A DNA stretch of 42,275 bases from Burkholderiales bacterium (GTDB lineage: Bacteria; Pseudomonadota; Gammaproteobacteria; Burkholderiales; SG8-39). Both the position numbers and the translations under genes were made by a program. The stretch's first letter is position 1; each line of letters starts with the position of its first letter. Below are positions 1,854 through 40,073 of this stretch, in pieces. The DNA lies in the NCBI GenBank assembly GCA_025458245.1, contig JALOSW010000003.1, forward strand, positions 1 to 42,275. The letters are read 5' to 3'. The notes under the pieces were generated by a model, which saw only the letters and a program-made list of their open reading frames with translations, was not told where the DNA came from and did no database searches.

Positions 1854-2174
1854 ATGGACGTGAAAGCGAAGATTCACCAGCAGGTCACCGGCCACCCGGT
1901 GGTGCTCTACATGAAGGGCACGCCGCAGTTTCCGCAGTGCGGATTCTCGGCGATGGCCGTGCAGATCCTTCAGGCCTCGGGCGCGAGCGATTTCTACTCC
2001 GTGAACGTGCTCGAGGAGCCCGAGATCCGCCAGGGCATCAAGGATTACGCGAACTGGCCAACGATCCCGCAGCTCTACCTCAAGGGCGAGTTCGTCGGCG
2101 GCTCGGACATCATGAAGGAAATGTACCAGTCGGGCGAGCTGCAGAAGAAGATCAAGGAAGTGGTGACGGCGTAG
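1854..2174 (+). CDS. grxD: Monothiol glutaredoxin GrxD (Grx4 family)
   Basis: A 106-residue CGFS-type glutaredoxin that binds and transfers [2Fe-2S] clusters with glutathione. The active site is CGFS at 29-32, preceded by the family motif MKGTPQFPQ. The glutathione-binding segments WPTIPQLY and GGSD follow. I chose the ATG at 1854 because CGGAGG lies 8-13 bp upstream and the product then has the normal family length; an upstream in-frame ATG at 1815 has no such support. Promoter and IscR-like site precede it. The last 15 codons are repeated just downstream in a 105-bp tandem duplication. Confidence 0.93.
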   Translation: MDVKAKIHQQVTGHPVVLYMKGTPQFPQCGFSAMAVQILQASGASDFYSVNVLEEPEIRQGIKDYANWPTIPQLYLKGEFVGGSDIMKEMYQSGELQKKIKEVVTA

Positions 2175-2199
2175 CGAGCCCGCTTGCTCGGGGGATTCT

Positions 2200-2222
2200 G
2201 AAAGGGGGCGTTGCCCCCTTTC
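2200..2222. terminator. Hairpin terminator, first copy, after grxD
   Basis: AAAGGGGGC and GCCCCCTTT pair around a 3-nt GTT loop, giving a 9-bp stem flanked by A and T runs on both sides. This shape can terminate in either direction. It lies 26 bp after the grxD stop. Confidence 0.6.
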
Positions 2223-2304
2223 TCACGCGCGCAGTCGGGCGAGCTGCAGAAGAAGATCAAGGAAGTGGTGACGGCGTAGCGAGCCCGCTTGCTCGGGGGA
2301 TTCT

Positions 2305-2327
2305 GAAAGGGGGCGTCGCCCCCTTTC
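2305..2327. terminator. Hairpin terminator, second copy
   Basis: This is the duplicated hairpin, with loop GTC instead of GTT. The two stems in series would form a double terminator between grxD and the oppositely oriented thioesterase operon. Confidence 0.55.
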
Positions 2328-2352
2328 TCACGCGCGCAGTCAAGAAAAGACC

Positions 2353-3131: not shown

Positions 3132-4022
3132 TCAACGGGCGGCATCGAGCAGGCGGGACATCATGCGCGCCGCCTGCGCTGCGTAGCTGCCGCCGAACAG
3201 GTTCGCATGGTTCAGCACGTGGTAGAGATTGTAGAGGTCGCGGCGCCGCGCGTACCCGGGGTCGATCGGCGCGATCTCGCCGTAGCCCTCGTAGAACGCG
3301 CGCGGGAAGCCGCCGAAGAGTTCCGTCATCGCGAGATCGGCCTCGGGGTCGCCGCGATACACGGCCGGATCGAAGACGACGGGCTCGCCGCTTTGGACGA
3401 ACGCCGCGTTTCCGCCCCACAGGTCGCCGTGGAGCAGCGCCGGCTTCGGCGCGCGGCCGGCGAGGAGACGGGGCACTGCCGCGCGCAGCCGCGCTCCGAG
3501 CGACTGGAGCGCATCGCCGAGGCCGCGCTCGGCCGCGAGCGCGAGCTGCGGCCCGAGCCGCTCACGGTCCCAGAACTCGGCCCAGTCGTGCGTCTCGCCG
3601 TTTCGCTGCGGCGTCGCCCCGATGAAGTTCGGGCGGTGCCAGCCGAAGGTCGTCCCGACCGGCCTCGCGTGCATGCGCGCGAGCGAGCGTCCGAGCTCGC
3701 GATACTCCGCAGGGCGGCCTTCGCGCAACGCGAGATGCTCCAGCACGAGGAAAGCCGTGTCCTCGGCGACGCCCTGCGCGATGACGGTCGGCACCCGCAT
3801 TCCGGCTGCCGCGAGCGCGGCGAGTCCGTCCGCTTCGGCCGCGAGGTTCGCGCCTTGCCGGGCATCGTTCGTTTTCGCGAAGTAGTGCCGGCCATCTTCG
3901 CCCGCGAGCGCGACCGAGGCGTGGATGCAGCCGCCGGAAACGGCGCGCGAAGAGGCGATGCGGAAGGGCGCCCCGGTCGCCGCGGAGATGGCGGCTGCGA
4001 TGAGCGGGGACGCGCGATTCAG
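3132..4022 (-). CDS. Fructosamine kinase family protein (FN3K/YniA-like)
   Basis: Aminoglycoside-phosphotransferase-fold kinase related to FN3K and E. coli YniA, which phosphorylate ketosamines on glycated proteins so that the sugar is released. Visible hallmarks are the ATP-site lysine in YFAKT, the catalytic loop LLHGDLWGGN, VVFDPAVYRGD (metal-binding Asp) and the C-terminal LYHVLNHANLFGG, all as in YniA. No ATG or GTG lies between the preceding stop and the conserved domain. The best start is CTG at 4022 (296 aa) or CTG at 4043, both inside a heptamer-repeat array, so the start is uncertain. It is co-directional with the protein kinase upstream and the thioesterase downstream. Confidence 0.82.
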   Translation of the reverse strand: MNRASPLIAAAISAATGAPFRIASSRAVSGGCIHASVALAGEDGRHYFAKTNDARQGANLAAEADGLAALAAAGMRVPTVIAQGVAEDTAFLVLEHLALREGRPAEYRELGRSLARMHARPVGTTFGWHRPNFIGATPQRNGETHDWAEFWDRERLGPQLALAAERGLGDALQSLGARLRAAVPRLLAGRAPKPALLHGDLWGGNAAFVQSGEPVVFDPAVYRGDPEADLAMTELFGGFPRAFYEGYGEIAPIDPGYARRRDLYNLYHVLNHANLFGGSYAAQAARMMSRLLDAAR

Positions 4023-4057
4023 GGACGAGGAACCGGGACTCAGGATCCCGGACCCTA
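4016..4057. repeat. Degenerate heptamer array at the kinase/fructosamine kinase junction
   Basis: Six 7-bp units in exact phase on the + strand: GATTCAG, GGACGAG, GAACCGG, GACTCAG, GATCCCG, GACCCTA. The last unit contains the reverse complement of the upstream kinase stop codon. The first contains the CTG taken as the fructosamine kinase start. Same family as the arrays at 30973, 32312, 34500 and 39973. Confidence 0.6.
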
Positions 4058-29461: not shown

Positions 29462-30967
29462 ATGAGATCTCTCGGCAACTTCCTCGACGACGGCGCGACC
29501 ACGCGCGGCGCGCTCTCCTCGCGGCTCGCGCGAGTCCTCGCGGCGATCGGGGCTGCGCTCGCGATGCTCGCGCTCCAGTCACCCGCGCTCGCGCAGCTCG
29601 GACCCCGCGCGCAGCCGGGACCGCTCGGTCAGCCCGCCCAGCCCGGCACGTTCGGACAGCCCGCGCCTGGTGCGCCGTTCGCGAAGCCGATGCCCGGATT
29701 CCCGCAGCCCTCGCTTCGCGCCGCGCCGCCTCCCGCCAGCGGCTTCGTCGACCGCATCGTCGCCGTGGTCAACAACGAGGTGATCACGCAGAAGGAGCTC
29801 GACGACCGCATTCGCCTCGTCACGATGCAGCTCCAGGCGCAGAAGGTGCCGCCGCCGCCGCGCGACGTGCTCGAGCGCCAGGTGCTCGAGCGCATGATCA
29901 TCGACCGCGCGCAGCTGCAATTCGCGCGCGAAACCGGCGTGCGCGTCGACGACCTCACGCTCGACCGCACCATCGCGCGGATCGCCGAGCAGAACCGGAT
30001 GTCGCCCGGCGATTTCCGGCGCGCGCTGGAGCGCGACGGCGTTTCGTACGAGAAGTTCCGCGAGGACATCCGCAACGAGCTCATCCTCGCGCGCCTGCGC
30101 GAGCGCGAGGTCGACAGCCGCATCCAGGTGGGCGATGCCGAGATCGACGCGTTCCTCGAGGAGCAGAAGGCGAGCCCGACCGGCGGCAACGTCGAGTACA
30201 ACCTACGCCACATCCTCGTGCGCGTGCCGGAGCAGGCGACGCCGGAACAGCTGGAGCGCCTCGCGGCGAAGGCTGCCGAGTCGCGGCGCCAGATCCTGTC
30301 GGGTGCCGATTTCGGGCAGGTGGCCGCGAGCTTCTCCGACGCCCCGGACGCGCTGCAGGGCGGGAGCCTCGGATGGCGGCCGCGCGACCGCCTCCCCGAA
30401 CTCTTCGCCGACGCGGTCGAGAAGCTCAAGCCGGGAGGCGTGACGCCCGTGCTGAGGAGTCCGGCGGGCTTCCACGTGATCCGCGTCGAGGACGTGCGCG
30501 GCGCTGCCGCGACCGCGCGCCAGGTGGACCAGACGCATGCCCGCCACATCCTCGTGCGCACGAGCGAGCTGGTCTCGGAAGCCGAGGCGCGACGCAAGCT
30601 CGCCCTGCTGCGCGAGCGCATCAAGGGCGGCGCCGACTTCGCCGAGCTGGCCCGGCTCAACTCCGACGACGGCTCGGCATCGCGCGGTGGCGACCTCGGC
30701 TGGATCTATCCCGGCGACACGGTGCCCGAGTTCGAGCGCGCAATGAACGAACTCAAGATTGGCGACGTCAGCGACCCCGTGCGCTCGCAGTTCGGCTACC
30801 ACCTCATCCAGGTGCTCGCGCGCCGCAAGGCGGACGTCGCGGCCGATCGCCAGCGCATGGAGGCGCGCCGCATCCTCGCCGAACGCAAGCTCGACGAGTC
30901 GATCCAGGACTGGATCCGCCAGCTCCGCGACCGAACGTACGTCGAATACCGGCTGGAAGAGCGGTAA
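29462..30967 (+). CDS. surA: Periplasmic chaperone / PPIase SurA
   Basis: Periplasmic chaperone for outer-membrane proteins, including LptD. The 501 residues have a long N-terminal signal (hydrophobic stretch about 24-44). An unusual low-complexity segment rich in Pro, Gln, Gly and Ala follows (45-94). The SurA core begins at FVDRIVAVVNNEVITQKELD. Two parvulin domains occur (about 242-345 and 356-455), each with RHILVR and LGW motifs. Length exceeds E. coli SurA (428) mostly through the insert. The normal next gene, pdxA, is absent; a heptamer-repeat element and rsmA follow instead. Confidence 0.94.
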   Translation: MRSLGNFLDDGATTRGALSSRLARVLAAIGAALAMLALQSPALAQLGPRAQPGPLGQPAQPGTFGQPAPGAPFAKPMPGFPQPSLRAAPPPASGFVDRIVAVVNNEVITQKELDDRIRLVTMQLQAQKVPPPPRDVLERQVLERMIIDRAQLQFARETGVRVDDLTLDRTIARIAEQNRMSPGDFRRALERDGVSYEKFREDIRNELILARLREREVDSRIQVGDAEIDAFLEEQKASPTGGNVEYNLRHILVRVPEQATPEQLERLAAKAAESRRQILSGADFGQVAASFSDAPDALQGGSLGWRPRDRLPELFADAVEKLKPGGVTPVLRSPAGFHVIRVEDVRGAAATARQVDQTHARHILVRTSELVSEAEARRKLALLRERIKGGADFAELARLNSDDGSASRGGDLGWIYPGDTVPEFERAMNELKIGDVSDPVRSQFGYHLIQVLARRKADVAADRQRMEARRILAERKLDESIQDWIRQLRDRTYVEYRLEER

Positions 30968-30972
30968 GGGGC

Positions 30973-31067
30973 GGATTCGGGATCCAGGATCCGGGATCCA
31001 GGATCTAGGATCCAGGATTGAGCTCTCGATCCTCAATCCTCAATCCTCAGTCCTGACTCCTGAATCC
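30973..31067. repeat. Heptamer array with inverted arms between surA and rsmA
   Basis: Seven forward 7-mers (GGATTCG, GGATCCA, GGATCCG, GGATCCA, GGATCTA, GGATCCA, GGATTGA) are followed by six inverted units (GGATCGA-type to GGATTCA on the opposite strand). The whole 95 bp can fold into a long imperfect hairpin beginning GGATTC and ending GAATCC. It starts 5 bp after surA and ends 2 bp before the TTG of rsmA. Confidence 0.85.
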
Positions 31068-31069
31068 CG

Positions 31070-31855
31070 TTGTCCCACGTTCCGCGCAAGCGCTTCGGGC
31101 AGCACTTCCTCGCCGATCGGCACTACGTCGAGCGGATCGTGTCCGCGATCGACCCCAAGCCTGCCGACACGGTCGTCGAGATCGGCCCCGGCCTCGGCGC
31201 ACTCACCGGGCCGCTGCTCGCACGGCTCGAGCGGCTGCACGTGGTGGAGATCGATCGCGACCTCGCTGCGCGGCTTCGGGAGACCTATCCGTCCGATCGC
31301 GTGGCGGTGCATGTCGCCGACGCGCTCGAGTTCGACTTCGCGCTGCTGCCCGAAGGGCTGCGCGTCGTCGGCAATCTTCCCTACAACATCTCGACGCCTC
31401 TGCTCTTCCGGCTCGTCGCCTACGCAGACCGGATTCGCGATCTCACCTTCATGCTGCAGAAGGAGGTCGTCGACCGGATGGTCGCCGCGCCGGCGACACC
31501 CGAATACGGGCGGCTCTCGGTGATGCTGCAATACCGCTTCGCGATGGCGAGGCTCTTCGACGTGCCTCCCGGCGCGTTCCGCCCGCCCCCAAAGGTCGAC
31601 TCGGCCGTCGTACGCATGGCGCCGCGACCCGCCGACGAACTGGCGGCGCGTGATCCGGCGCGGCTCGCCGCCCTCGTCACGGCGGCCTTCGGACAGCGTC
31701 GAAAGACGCTCCGCAACGCGCTCGCGGGGCTGCTCGGCCCGGATGAGTTCAGGGACGCCGGGATCGACCCGGGCGCACGCGGGGAGACGCTCCCCGTCGA
31801 AGCGTTCGTGCGCCTGGCGAACATCGCGTACGCCCCCGGCGCGGCGCGCGGCTGA
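31070..31855 (+). CDS. rsmA: 16S rRNA (adenine1518/1519-N6) dimethyltransferase RsmA (KsgA)
   Basis: Dimethylates A1518 and A1519 in helix 45 of 16S rRNA and checks 30S assembly. The 261 residues start HVPRKRFGQHFL, a family hallmark, followed by the SAM motif VVEIGPGLGALT and the catalytic NLPYNISTP. The C-terminal RRKTLRNAL follows. The only start matching this N-terminus is TTG at 31070; there is no Shine-Dalgarno because the repeat array runs to 2 bp upstream. It converges with gloA (18-bp gap). Confidence 0.93.
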   Translation: MSHVPRKRFGQHFLADRHYVERIVSAIDPKPADTVVEIGPGLGALTGPLLARLERLHVVEIDRDLAARLRETYPSDRVAVHVADALEFDFALLPEGLRVVGNLPYNISTPLLFRLVAYADRIRDLTFMLQKEVVDRMVAAPATPEYGRLSVMLQYRFAMARLFDVPPGAFRPPPKVDSAVVRMAPRPADELAARDPARLAALVTAAFGQRRKTLRNALAGLLGPDEFRDAGIDPGARGETLPVEAFVRLANIAYAPGAARG

Positions 31856-32284: not shown

Positions 32285-32311
32285 GGGATGTCCCCGCTGA
32301 AGTTGAACTGC

Positions 32312-32346
32312 GAATCCTGAATCGCTAACGGCGAACCTGCAACCTG
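32312..32346. repeat. Degenerate heptamer array upstream of gloA
   Basis: Five in-phase 7-mers: GAATCCT, GAATCGC, TAACGGC, GAACCTG, CAACCTG, the reverse orientation of the GGATTCN family. It lies in the 150-bp gap between ygjP and gloA, where no gene is visible. It is 27 bp from the gloA start, so it does not replace its Shine-Dalgarno. Confidence 0.45.
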
Positions 32347-32434
32347 CGGCGAGCTTCACGCGTCGGGCCGCTCCGCCGCGGACTGCTTCTCTGCGCGTCT
32401 CTTCATCCTTTGCGCCCGTTGCGTCGGGGCGCTG

Positions 32435-33184
32435 CTACAGCTCCGGCAATGTCCGCTCGCGCTCGCGCAGCTCGCGCCGCGCCGCCCGCCAGTTCGGAAA
32501 GAGCCGCTCCACGGCGCGCCAGAACTTCGCCGAGTGATTCATCTCGTCGAGATGCGCGAGCTCGTGCGCCACCACGTAGTCGACGAGATGCAGGTCGAGG
32601 TGGACGAGCCGCCAGGACAGGAACACTCGGCCGTCGTGATGGCAGCTGCCCCACTGGCTTCTCGCGTTGGAGAGGCGGATCGCCGGGGCGGCACGCCCGG
32701 CGCGGGCGGCGAGCAGCGCCGCGCGCTCGCCGAGCAGGCTGAGCGCATGGTCGCGCAGGAACGCGACGACCGAATCGCGCATCGCGGTGACCGGCGCGTC
32801 CTGCCGCAAAGCGACTTCGAGCCGCGTGCCGGCGAGCCGCGTGGCCGGCGCGTGCGGCGCGAGCGCGAGCGACACGGGTCTGCCGAGCACCGGCAGGATC
32901 GCGCCGACACGCCACTCGAAGGGCTGCGCGGGCCGGCGTGCGTGATCGTCGAGCTTCTTGGTCACCCAGCGCGCCTTCTCGCGGATGAACGCTTCGATCT
33001 CGGCGAGCGCGACCCAGTGCGGCGCGCTCGCCGTGAGACCGTGACGGTCCACGACGAGACCGATCGTGCGGCGCTGGGCCCGGCGCAGCCGGTAGGTCAC
33101 GACACGCCCCTCGAGCTGGATGTAGCGGTGGCGTGCGTCCGCCACCGGCGGCACAGCGAGCATGAAGTCGAGCTGGAGCTGCAT
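32435..33184 (-). CDS. YgjP-type metal-dependent hydrolase (SprT/M48-like)
   Basis: Likely zinc metallopeptidase-like protein of the YgjP/DUF45 family. The zinc motif is HELAH (207-211), with His217 in NHSAKFW as the third ligand, preceded by the family's RSQWGSC and FLSWRLVHL. The N-terminal part has RRAQRRTIGLVVDRHGL, typical of the family. 249 residues, soluble, no signal. Its ATG shares one base with the plsC stop (TGATG). Molecular target unknown. Confidence 0.88.
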   Translation of the reverse strand: MQLQLDFMLAVPPVADARHRYIQLEGRVVTYRLRRAQRRTIGLVVDRHGLTASAPHWVALAEIEAFIREKARWVTKKLDDHARRPAQPFEWRVGAILPVLGRPVSLALAPHAPATRLAGTRLEVALRQDAPVTAMRDSVVAFLRDHALSLLGERAALLAARAGRAAPAIRLSNARSQWGSCHHDGRVFLSWRLVHLDLHLVDYVVAHELAHLDEMNHSAKFWRAVERLFPNWRAARRELRERERTLPEL

Positions 33185-33930
33185 CAGCGAGGTCCCGCGG
33201 CCGCCGCGCGCCGCGCGCGCTCCGCCGCCACGAGCGCGCCCGTCTCGGCCTCGATCCAGTCCTCGACCCGCTGCATGATCTGCTCGGAGGACAGGCCTTC
33301 CGGCGCGATCGGCGCGCCGATTCTCACGGTGACATGGCCCGGGTGCTTGAGGAAGGAATTGCGCGGCCAGACCAGCCCCGCGTTGTGGGCCACCGGAAGG
33401 ATCTTGGCGCCGGTGTTCACCGAGAGGATCGCGCCGCCCGGGCGGTACTTGCCCCGCTTGTCCACGGGAATGCGCGTTCCCTCCGGATAGATCATGATCG
33501 AGAAGCCCTCCGCGAGCCGCTCGCGGCCGAGCTCGATCATCCGCCGCATCGCGTTTCTGCGGTTGGCGCGGTTGATCGCGATCGGCGAGAAAAGAGCAAG
33601 CCCCCAGCCGAGGAACGGCAGCCACAGGAGCTCGCGCTTCAGCACATACACGTGCGGGGGGAAGATCGACGTGTAGGCGATCGTCTCCCAAGCCGAGGCG
33701 TGCTTCGAGAGGATGATCGCCGGCTCCGCGGGGATGTTCTCGCTGCCGATCACCTCGTAGTCGATGTGCAGCAGACGCTTTGCGAGCCACGTCGCGAACT
33801 GCGGCCAGCCCGCGATGATCTTCCAGCGGGCCATGCGCGAGAGCGGCGCAGTGCACAGGACCATGAACGAGTAGGGGATGACGACCGCGACCAGGATCGT
33901 CTGGTAGAGGAGCGAGCGGACGAACGTCAT
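33184..33930 (-). CDS. plsC: 1-acyl-glycerol-3-phosphate acyltransferase (PlsC-like)
   Basis: Membrane enzyme that acylates lysophosphatidate in phospholipid synthesis. The 248 residues start with a hydrophobic helix (about 8-28). The acyltransferase boxes are KHASAWET (block I, about 76-83), LFSPIAINR (block II) and IYPEGTRIP (block III). Block I reads HX4E (His77...Glu82) rather than the usual HX4D. I selected the ATG at 33930 after the gmhB stop (10-bp gap); a longer form from 34017 would overlap gmhB and adds basic, unrelated residues. Paralogues with other acyl acceptors are possible. Confidence 0.86.
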   Translation of the reverse strand: MTFVRSLLYQTILVAVVIPYSFMVLCTAPLSRMARWKIIAGWPQFATWLAKRLLHIDYEVIGSENIPAEPAIILSKHASAWETIAYTSIFPPHVYVLKRELLWLPFLGWGLALFSPIAINRANRRNAMRRMIELGRERLAEGFSIMIYPEGTRIPVDKRGKYRPGGAILSVNTGAKILPVAHNAGLVWPRNSFLKHPGHVTVRIGAPIAPEGLSSEQIMQRVEDWIEAETGALVAAERARRAAAAGPR

Positions 33931-33940
33931 CGCCGCGCCG

Positions 33941-34474
33941 CTATGCGCCGAGCGCTTGCGCGACCGCCGCGAGATCCGCGTAGATCTCCGTGCCCTCGGG
34001 AAGCCCGCCGGCGTCACGGGTGCGCGCGCCCTTGCCGGTCAGCACGAGGATCGGCCGCGCCCGCACGGCGACGGCCGCCTGCAGGTCCCTGAGCGAGTCG
34101 CCGACCGTCGGCACGCCGTCGAGCGCCGTGTTGAACCGCTCGGCGATGTCGACGAGCATGCCCGGACTGGGCTTGCGGCAGGCGCAGGTCGAGTCCGCGG
34201 CATGCGGGCAGTAGAACACCGCGTCGATCCGCCCGCCGGCCTGGTTCACCGCGCGGTGCATCTTGTCGTGGATCGCGGAGAGCGTCGCCATGTCGAACAG
34301 GCCGCGGCCGACGCCCGACTGGTTGGTCGCGACCACCACGCGGAAGCCCGCCTGCGTCAGGCGCGCGACCGCCTCGAGGCTTCCCGGGATCGGCCGCCAC
34401 TCTTCCGGGCTCTTGACGAACTGATCGCTGTCGAAGTTGATGACGCCGTCGCGATCGAGGATGACGAGCTTCAT
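33941..34474 (-). CDS. gmhB: D-glycero-beta-D-manno-heptose 1,7-bisphosphate 7-phosphatase
   Basis: HAD-family phosphatase that makes heptose-1-phosphate for the LPS inner core. The 177 residues show the nucleophile motif LDRDGVIN (Asp7, Asp9), VVATNQSGVGRG (motif II Thr) and the structural zinc site C89-x-H91...C97-x-C99 in CPHAADSTCACRKP. Motif IV, VGDSLRDLQAA, follows. Start ATG at 34474 is clear. It lies 124 bp after glyS; heptamer remnants occur in that gap. Confidence 0.94.
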   Translation of the reverse strand: MKLVILDRDGVINFDSDQFVKSPEEWRPIPGSLEAVARLTQAGFRVVVATNQSGVGRGLFDMATLSAIHDKMHRAVNQAGGRIDAVFYCPHAADSTCACRKPSPGMLVDIAERFNTALDGVPTVGDSLRDLQAAVAVRARPILVLTGKGARTRDAGGLPEGTEIYADLAAVAQALGA

Positions 34475-34499
34475 GAGGCAATGCTACTTGGTCGTCGGC

Positions 34500-34520
34500 G
34501 AATCGTGAATCGCGAGTGAA
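34500..34520. repeat. Heptamer remnant between glyS and gmhB
   Basis: GAATCGT, GAATCGC and GAGTGAA occur in a row 25 bp before the gmhB start. Only three units, so the assignment to the family is tentative. The rest of the 124-bp gap shows nothing further. Confidence 0.35.
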
Positions 34521-39966: not shown

Positions 39967-39972
39967 GATCGG

Positions 39973-40040
39973 GGATCAGGATTCAGGATTCGGGATTCGG
40001 GATTCGGGATTCGGGATTCGGGATTCAGGATTCGGGATCC
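39973..40040. repeat. Heptamer tandem array in the corC leader
   Basis: Eight near-perfect 7-mers GGATTC(A/G) run from 39979 to 40034, flanked by GGATCA and GGATCC. This is the most regular copy of the family in the window. It fills most of the 107-bp gap between ybeY and corC, ending 7 bp upstream of the corC ATG (on the minus strand it reads as NGAATCC units). Confidence 0.92.
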
Positions 40041-40073
40041 TCGATCCGGGGGGGCAGCAAGCGGGTTGCACCC

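What the first reader, a model, noticed from the sequence alone, without database searches (positions are those of the whole stretch)
32312..34520. The heptamer family is dispersed: further degenerate arrays before gloA and gmhB
Five in-phase 7-mers (32312-32346) and three (34500-34520) match the reverse form NGAATCC. With 4016, 30973 and 39973 this makes five sites in 42 kb, all intergenic or at gene edges and showing different levels of decay. No transposase is in view. Dispersal of pure 7-bp-period DNA, rather than a bounded element, is unusual and its mechanism is unclear.
Basis: partly seen in the sequence, partly recalled or inferred. Interest (0 to 1): 0.55.

Follow-up and report, generated by a model that had tools for sequence, protein, structure and literature searches.

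The report
Seven-base repeats anchored at gene edges
This bacterium has many short runs of a seven-base DNA repeat packed into the gaps between genes, nearly always pointing away from the neighbouring gene; similar repeats are known from other bacteria and most likely grow and shrink by copying slips, but what fixes their direction is still unexplained.

Summary
The dispersed family is real; of the two cited sites one is a plausible remnant, the other is not established. GGATTCN arrays: 283 overlapping 3-unit matches (up to 3 mismatches) genome-wide against 2 reversed controls; present in the one other genus member searched, in 0 of 59 further relatives.

Organisation: the 5' end of the G-rich strand lies a median 5 bp from a stop codon (34 of 39 within 15 bp) or 6 bp from a start codon; 3' ends lie 57 and 118 bp away. 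A second set gave 15 of 18 the same way. Neighbouring arrays here: 16 convergent, 0 divergent, 2 same direction; crudely called loci of other taxa are less strict.

Mechanism favoured: replication slippage plus selection against intrusion into genes. Two overlapping contigs of this assembly differ by one 7-bp unit and 3 substitutions. One Xanthomonas gene's stop codon carries a period-7 array in 28 of 30 loci, with unit type changed en bloc. No transposase in 40 window genes; no RVT_1 in either array-rich genome (incomplete).

New member of a known kind (Xanthomonas/Nostoc heptamers, PMC4692102). Polarity between two stop codons remains unexplained.

The parts
4008..4056 (+). Degenerate GGATTCN array between a fructosamine-kinase gene (minus strand, left) and the stop codon of a protein-kinase/cNMP-binding gene (minus strand, right)
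   Evidence: Score 12.1; none of 40 shuffled windows reached 11. Pfam of neighbours. The home-made gene finder starts the left gene 207 bp away, but its Pfam match begins at profile position 72, so the true start is probably next to the array (inference).
30973..31021 (+). Left arm of a convergent pair, 7 units, starting 5 bp after the surA stop codon
   Evidence: Score 25.9, distance, SurA by Pfam
31022..31025 (.). 4-nt centre (gctc) between the arms; the same spacing in 6 tight pairs of two species
31026..31067 (-). Right arm of the pair, 6 units, ending 2 bp before the predicted TTG start of ksgA
   Evidence: Score 19.9; pair folds as RNA at -50.5 kcal/mol, z -3.56; RrnaAD by Pfam
32311..32346 (-). 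Probable degenerate remnant upstream of gloA: two good units, three poor
   Evidence: 20/30; 0.105 expected per shuffled window, 19 of 200 shuffled windows hold one, 0 of 2000 local shuffles; degenerate heptamers in the same gap of G001 on the other strand
34499..34519 (-). Claimed three-unit site before gmhB; not distinguishable from chance window-wide
   Evidence: 13/18, about 2.15 expected per shuffled window; local p 0.0055
39972..40048 (+). Best array of the window, 11 units, 5 bp from the predicted start codon of a CorC-family gene (minus strand)
   Evidence: Score 54.5, distance; the gap is 25 bp in G001

Best explanation
A slippage-driven, selection-filtered intergenic heptamer satellite. 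A short GGATTC-like seed in a non-coding gap gains and loses whole 7-bp units by replication slippage (unit change shown at one site here; slippage inferred), so that variant units sweep through an array (seen as blocks here and as en bloc differences in Xanthomonas). Arrays spread over the gap until they touch a start or stop codon, where purifying selection stops them; they survive mostly in gaps that need no promoter (inferred). The G-rich strand is not tolerated just upstream of a start codon, which would explain the orientation on the start side (inferred). Why it also points away from stop codons is not explained. A lineage-specific rise in seed formation or tolerance made the family abundant in this genus (abundance shown; cause inferred).
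For: Two overlapping contig ends (C86, C94) align over 349 columns with 339 identities, 3 substitutions and one gap of exactly 7 bp inside the array; read as strain variants of one locus. Runs of one variant unit inside arrays: GGATCTA x5, GGATTGA x4. At one Xanthomonas gene 28 of 30 fetched loci (of 35 genomes matched) show period-7 signal above shuffles directly after the stop codon, 27 of 30 with two or more GGGNNTC units, while the unit is mainly GGGAATC, GGGATTC, GGGAGTC or GGGGTTC by species, and L282 holds a block of 6-mers. Copy number varies within X. euvesicatoria: 6-18, 5-16, 5-12 and 4-5 repeats at four such loci (PMC8002079, table passage). Vibrio: two species have a pure array between stop and a terminator-like hairpin; 29 of 29 other fetched loci have no unit. 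Predicted start codons that an array abuts have a Shine-Dalgarno-like motif in 1 of 25, others in 188 of 448. No G-strand 3' end lies nearer than 32 bp upstream of a predicted start (29 measured).
Against: Slippage alone does not predict polarity: between two stop codons, where starts and promoters do not matter, single arrays still have d5<d3 in 6 of 7. The shared 4-nt spacing of tight pairs (gap 4 modulo 7 in 10 of 16, p 1e-5) suggests shared descent or a common way of forming. No cause of the genus-specific abundance was found. The polarity is looser in the loci of other taxa under a crude gene caller: d5<d3 in 39 of 56, and 12 convergent, 5 divergent, 8 same-direction neighbours.
Confidence: 0.6

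Rival explanations
1. Directional templated 3'-end synthesis: DNA ends at breaks in gaps are extended with a G-rich heptamer (as telomerase does) and rejoined, giving convergent arms and fixed polarity.
For: Polarity on all edge types; 16 convergent, 0 divergent neighbours in the genus, 2 and 0 in the second set; convergent arms of different heptamers (GGATTCN against GGACAGA) at four G001 loci, so arms form independently; constant spacing in tight pairs.
Against: No RVT_1 reverse transcriptase in G000 or G001 (0 of 2; both incomplete, 77% and 89%), present in 10 of 37 genomes searched. 3' ends are not cleaner than 5' ends in any of 4 groups; if anything they are more degenerate, not significantly. 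6-mer blocks and a one-unit variant look like slippage. The Vibrio gain left the neighbouring hairpin in place.
Confidence: 0.12
2. A mobile palindromic element (REP/MITE-like) with heptamer arms and a GGATYSA-NNNN-TSRATCC centre, copied into gaps.
For: 13 exact centre places listed in G000 (12 loci, as C86 and C94 are one), at most 1 exact in each of the five relatives listed; G001 and G021 were cut from the list. Many singles keep a decayed opposite arm: 12 of 33 against 2 of 33 for the control orientation.
Against: With one mismatch allowed the centre is not enriched in G001 (10 places, relatives 3-16, G000 27). Arms within a tight pair match each other no better than swapped arms (0.77 against 0.81); hetero-heptamer pairs; no transposase in 40 window genes; Vibrio gains contain no centre.
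Confidence: 0.13
3. A selected RNA or DNA structure (hairpin, terminator or G-quadruplex) that regulates the neighbouring genes.
For: Persistence of an array at one stop codon across Xanthomonas; strong hairpin at the ksgA pair; G4 formation by repeat oligonucleotides and transcription of repeats reported (PMC4692102).
Against: No compensatory pairing between arms; unit sequence and number change freely; only 39% of units here end in G and so give three Gs in a row; no Rfam match in the window; that paper states it could not identify a role in gene regulation.
Confidence: 0.12

Closest known systems
GGGAATC / GGGGA(C/T)T heptamer repeats of Xanthomonas and Nostoc (Rehm et al. 2015, PMC4692102; abstract and sections 3, 10, 13, 14, 16 read)
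   Same: G-rich heptamers, dispersed, mostly intergenic, convergent inverted pairs, G-strand nearer to its 5' neighbour gene, many gene classes, generally not linked to mobile elements
   Different: Unit here is GGATTCN (A or G last), GGG in a minority of junctions; other lineage (betaproteobacterial gene order, inferred); tight pairs with a constant 4-nt spacing; a second heptamer (GGACAGA) in the sister species
TAACTGA repeats of Beggiatoaceae (MacGregor 2015, PMC4679880; abstract, introduction and section headings read)
   Same: Intergenic heptamers next to start codons, a heading reports few ribosome-binding sites there, scattered phylogeny, no evident mechanism of spread
   Different: Unrelated unit; mostly upstream of start codons
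GGACCGG four-unit elements of Geobacter metallireducens (PMC2700814; passages read)
   Same: 49 dispersed places with tandem heptamers
   Different: Four repeats, also inside genes
Heptamer VNTR loci of Xanthomonas MLVA schemes (PMC8002079, PMC6459536; table passages read)
   Same: GGGATTC, GGGAATC and related units; variable copy number in PMC8002079
   Different: Used as typing markers; position rule not seen in the passages read
Bacterial satellites from heptamers, e.g. (GATAGRA)n in Chloroflexus (PMC6749651; passages read)
   Same: Many sites of one heptamer in one genome
   Different: Unrelated unit; position rule not seen in the passages read

Membership tests
Xanthomonas-type GGGAATC repeats (PMC4692102 definition) | At least two units and at least one GGGAATC heptamer | tested here: not met
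   Window arrays hold no GGGAATC (sequences)
Xanthomonas-type GGGAATC repeats (PMC4692102 definition) | Intergenic bias | tested here: met
   74 of 77 arrays outside predicted genes
Xanthomonas-type GGGAATC repeats (PMC4692102 definition) | Convergent inverted pairs and proximity to the 5' neighbour gene | tested here: met
   16 convergent, 0 divergent, 2 same; d5<d3 in 65 of 73 and 15 of 18
Xanthomonas-type GGGAATC repeats (PMC4692102 definition) | G-quadruplex formation | not testable with these tools
   39% of units end in G; no biophysics possible
Dispersed intergenic heptamer satellite (broad kind) | Tandem 7-bp units with variable number, many sites | tested here: met
REP / MITE / insertion element | Associated transposase nearby | tested here: not met
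   None in 40 window genes; the rest of the genome was not searched for transposases
REP / MITE / insertion element | Fixed termini and target-site duplication | tested here: inconclusive
   Pure heptamer gain at the Vibrio site; in this genus the gaps are mostly not alignable
Telomerase-like templated repeat | Reverse transcriptase with template | tested here: not met
   0 of 2 array-rich genomes have RVT_1 (genomes incomplete)

The most novel reading that the evidence does not exclude
Heptamer arrays across bacterial phyla share a DNA-level directional growth: each array is anchored by the 5' end of its G-rich strand at a coding edge and grows 3'-ward, independently from each side of a gap and with different heptamers on the two sides, by a polar DNA-synthesis process that is neither plain slippage nor transposition nor reverse transcription.
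Probability: 0.13. Interest if true: 0.75.

Novelty: new member of a known kind. Interest (0 to 1): 0.42.

Why it matters
Heptamer families have been noted for years without an agreed mechanism. Here the position rule is measured on exact stop codons, repeated on a second set, and combined with one-unit variation in the same assembly and wholesale unit turnover at one orthologous stop codon. That makes two questions testable: what produces the polarity in gaps between two stop codons, and how genes cope when the repeat has displaced the ribosome-binding site (motif in 1 of 25 against 188 of 448 predicted starts).

Tried and rejected
Telomerase-like reverse transcription: attractive for the polarity, but no RVT_1 in either array-rich genome and no age gradient along arrays. 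Bounded palindromic element: tight pairs share a spacing, but arms do not mirror each other. A supposed copied arm in contigs C86 and C94 turned out to be one overlapping stretch in two variants, not a dispersed copy; my first position-by-position comparison was off by 7 bp. Empty-site comparison inside the genus: G000 and G001 are about 80% identical in genes and their gaps are mostly not alignable; Xanthomonas and Vibrio were used instead. The reversed control is not independent, because arrays with an A at the last position also match it. A possible strand bias in one Xanthomonas genome was not followed.

Limits: genes were called with a home-made codon-usage finder; starts are uncertain, stops exact. 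Of 77 arrays, 3 inside genes and 1 that lacks a gene on one side were left out of the 73. In one search, with a cruder longest-ORF caller, only 56 of 127 arrays could be measured. Stretches were chosen because they hold arrays, or because they are orthologues of the window, except ten contigs picked by number (67.6 kb, 2 arrays of score 9 or more, one weak). L297 was left out of the second set as an overlap. Of the Xanthomonas matches 30 of 35 genomes, and of the Vibrio matches 30 of 60, were fetched as loci.

Full report
OBSERVATION. A phase-locked scan of the window finds GGATTCN arrays at 4008-4056, 30973-31021, 31026-31067 and 39972-40048, and a weak one at 32311-32324. In dinucleotide shuffles the five-unit score of the 32311 site is expected 0.105 times per window; 19 of 200 shuffled windows hold such a place, and 0 of 2000 shuffles of its own gap do. 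Its plain period-7 self-match is ordinary for this window. The same gap in the sister species holds a degenerate heptamer run. The three-unit score of 34499 is expected about 2.15 times per window (local p 0.0055). So the first cited site is a probable remnant and the second is not established. Tandem Repeats Finder lists the arrays at 30973, 31025 and 39972 and neither cited site.

GENOME SCALE. The assembly has 2.98 Mb in 267 contigs, 77% complete. Three-unit matches with up to 3 mismatches number 283 (overlapping) against 2 for the reversed pattern. With up to 1 mismatch there are 125 in this genome, 30 in the one other genome of the genus, and none in 59 further relatives of family and order; the control rings once, in G050. 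A motif-free test, GGA at period 7 five times, gives 137 places here, 36 in the congener, and matches in 3 of 35 other relatives, where the listed matches fall in one array each; the reversed control of that test is contaminated by the arrays themselves. The family is thus a genus-level burst. In a phylum sample 4 of 299 genomes, this one included, have a four-unit array with at most 1 mismatch.

POSITION RULE. In 77 arrays from stretches of both species and the window, 3 lay inside predicted genes. The 5' end of the G-rich strand is a median 5 bp from a stop codon (34 of 39 within 15 bp) or 6 bp from a start codon (27 of 35); the 3' end is 57 bp from a stop (6 of 50 within 15 bp) or 118 bp from a start (0 of 23). 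Overall d5<d3 in 65 of 73. A second, later set of 19 arrays gave 15 of 18. Singles alone: 33 of 39 by position in the gap, including 6 of 7 between two stop codons. Neighbouring arrays within 200 bp: 16 convergent, 0 divergent, 2 in the same direction, and 2, 0 and 2 in the second set. The named loci, with a cruder gene caller, show a weaker trend: 39 of 56, stop-side medians 7 against 113 bp, and 12 convergent, 5 divergent, 8 same-direction neighbours. Rehm et al. reported the same rule for Xanthomonas and Nostoc (PMC4692102, sections read).

PAIRS. Six tight pairs of both species have exactly 4 nt between the arms, and 10 of 16 convergent gaps equal 4 modulo 7. Thirteen exact centres are listed in this genome (12 loci), at most 1 in each of five relatives listed; with one mismatch the counts are 27 here, 10 in G001 and 3 to 16 in six relatives, so the centre is not shown to be special in G001. 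Of 33 apparently single arrays 12 keep a decayed opposite arm at the other gene edge, against 2 for the control orientation (two of the 33 rows are overlapping flanks of one locus, L084). But the arms are independent: in G001 a second heptamer, GGACAGA, forms one arm and GGATTCN or GGATTGA the other at L050, L053, L056 and L312; GGACAGA-type rows have d5<d3 in 12 of 15 with both flanks (16 listed, one of them a GGACTGA run); and arms within a tight pair match no better than swapped arms. At one gap the long arm is on opposite sides in the two species.

TURNOVER. Contigs C86 and C94 overlap by 349 columns with 339 identities, 3 substitutions and one 7-bp gap inside the array, read as strain variants of one locus. 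At a Xanthomonas gene all 35 genomes matched and 30 loci were fetched; 28 of 30 have period-7 signal above shuffles right after the stop codon, and 27 of 30 have two or more GGGNNTC units (L275 and L278 fail the first test, L273, L275 and L276 the second). The unit type differs en bloc, and the bases right after the stop often follow the local type (by eye). One species has a block of 6-mers. Within X. euvesicatoria four such loci vary by 6-18, 5-16, 5-12 and 4-5 units (PMC8002079, table passage). In Vibrio two species carry a pure array between stop codon and a terminator-like hairpin; 29 of 29 other fetched loci have no unit in the 70 bases after the gene.

WHAT IT COSTS. Predicted start codons that an array abuts have a Shine-Dalgarno-like motif in 1 of 25 cases, others in 188 of 448 (p 7e-5). 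Starts are predicted, so this needs confirmation. The ksgA pair folds well as RNA (-50.5 kcal/mol, z -3.56), as its inverted arms would make it do.

SURROUNDINGS. All 40 predicted window genes were scanned with Pfam: 38 have a family, mostly housekeeping (LptD, SurA, RrnaAD, glyoxalase, glycyl-tRNA synthetase, LNT, CorC, YbeY, PhoH, Hem proteins), none a transposase; gene names beyond these are recalled. The window has no Rfam match. Between surA and ksgA, outgroups G003 and G021 hold about 800-900 bp more than this genome; pdxA would be expected there (recalled, not tested), so the pair may sit where a gene was lost in this genus.

MECHANISM. Shown: whole-unit change, blocks of variant units, a clean gain in Vibrio, a stop at coding edges. 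Inferred: replication slippage as the motor, selection as the edge-setter, intolerance of the G-rich strand just upstream of starts. Not explained: polarity in stop|stop gaps and the constant spacing. A telomerase-like model would give both but finds no reverse transcriptase and no age gradient.

NOVELTY. A new member of a known kind. GGGATTC as a variable-number repeat of Xanthomonas is in print. Searches for 'GGATTCG' with 'tandem repeat' (15 of 133 papers listed), heptamer and palindromic repeats (7 of 7), GGGAATC (10 of 39) and heptanucleotide repeats (30 of 33 and 15 of 80) listed no paper whose title or abstract start treats GGATTCN as a dispersed family outside Xanthomonas; the unlisted papers and the full texts of most listed ones were not seen.

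Noticed in passing
window 30967-31070; L064, L065: surA and ksgA are adjacent here and in G001, while two outgroups have about 800-900 bp more between them, possibly pdxA; the convergent heptamer pair sits at this junction.
   Followed up: partly
L050:5101-5149, L053:4929-4963, L309:4833-4888, L311:4882-4930 and others: A second dispersed heptamer, GGACAGA, in the sister species, often beginning with a shared ..CAGA start and facing GGATTCN arms.
   Followed up: partly
window 2127-2341: Two 105-bp tandem copies at 99% identity, beginning inside the end of a glutaredoxin gene (1854-2174).
   Followed up: no
L296:5194-5542 and L297:1-342: Overlapping contig ends that differ by one heptamer unit and 3 substitutions; arrays may be breaking this assembly.
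   Followed up: yes
G064 contig C1: In one Xanthomonas genome the perfect GGATTCN matches are 39 forward and 3 reverse, which may be a strand bias.
   Followed up: no
start codons listed: 24 of 25 predicted genes with an array at the start codon lack a Shine-Dalgarno-like motif.
   Followed up: partly
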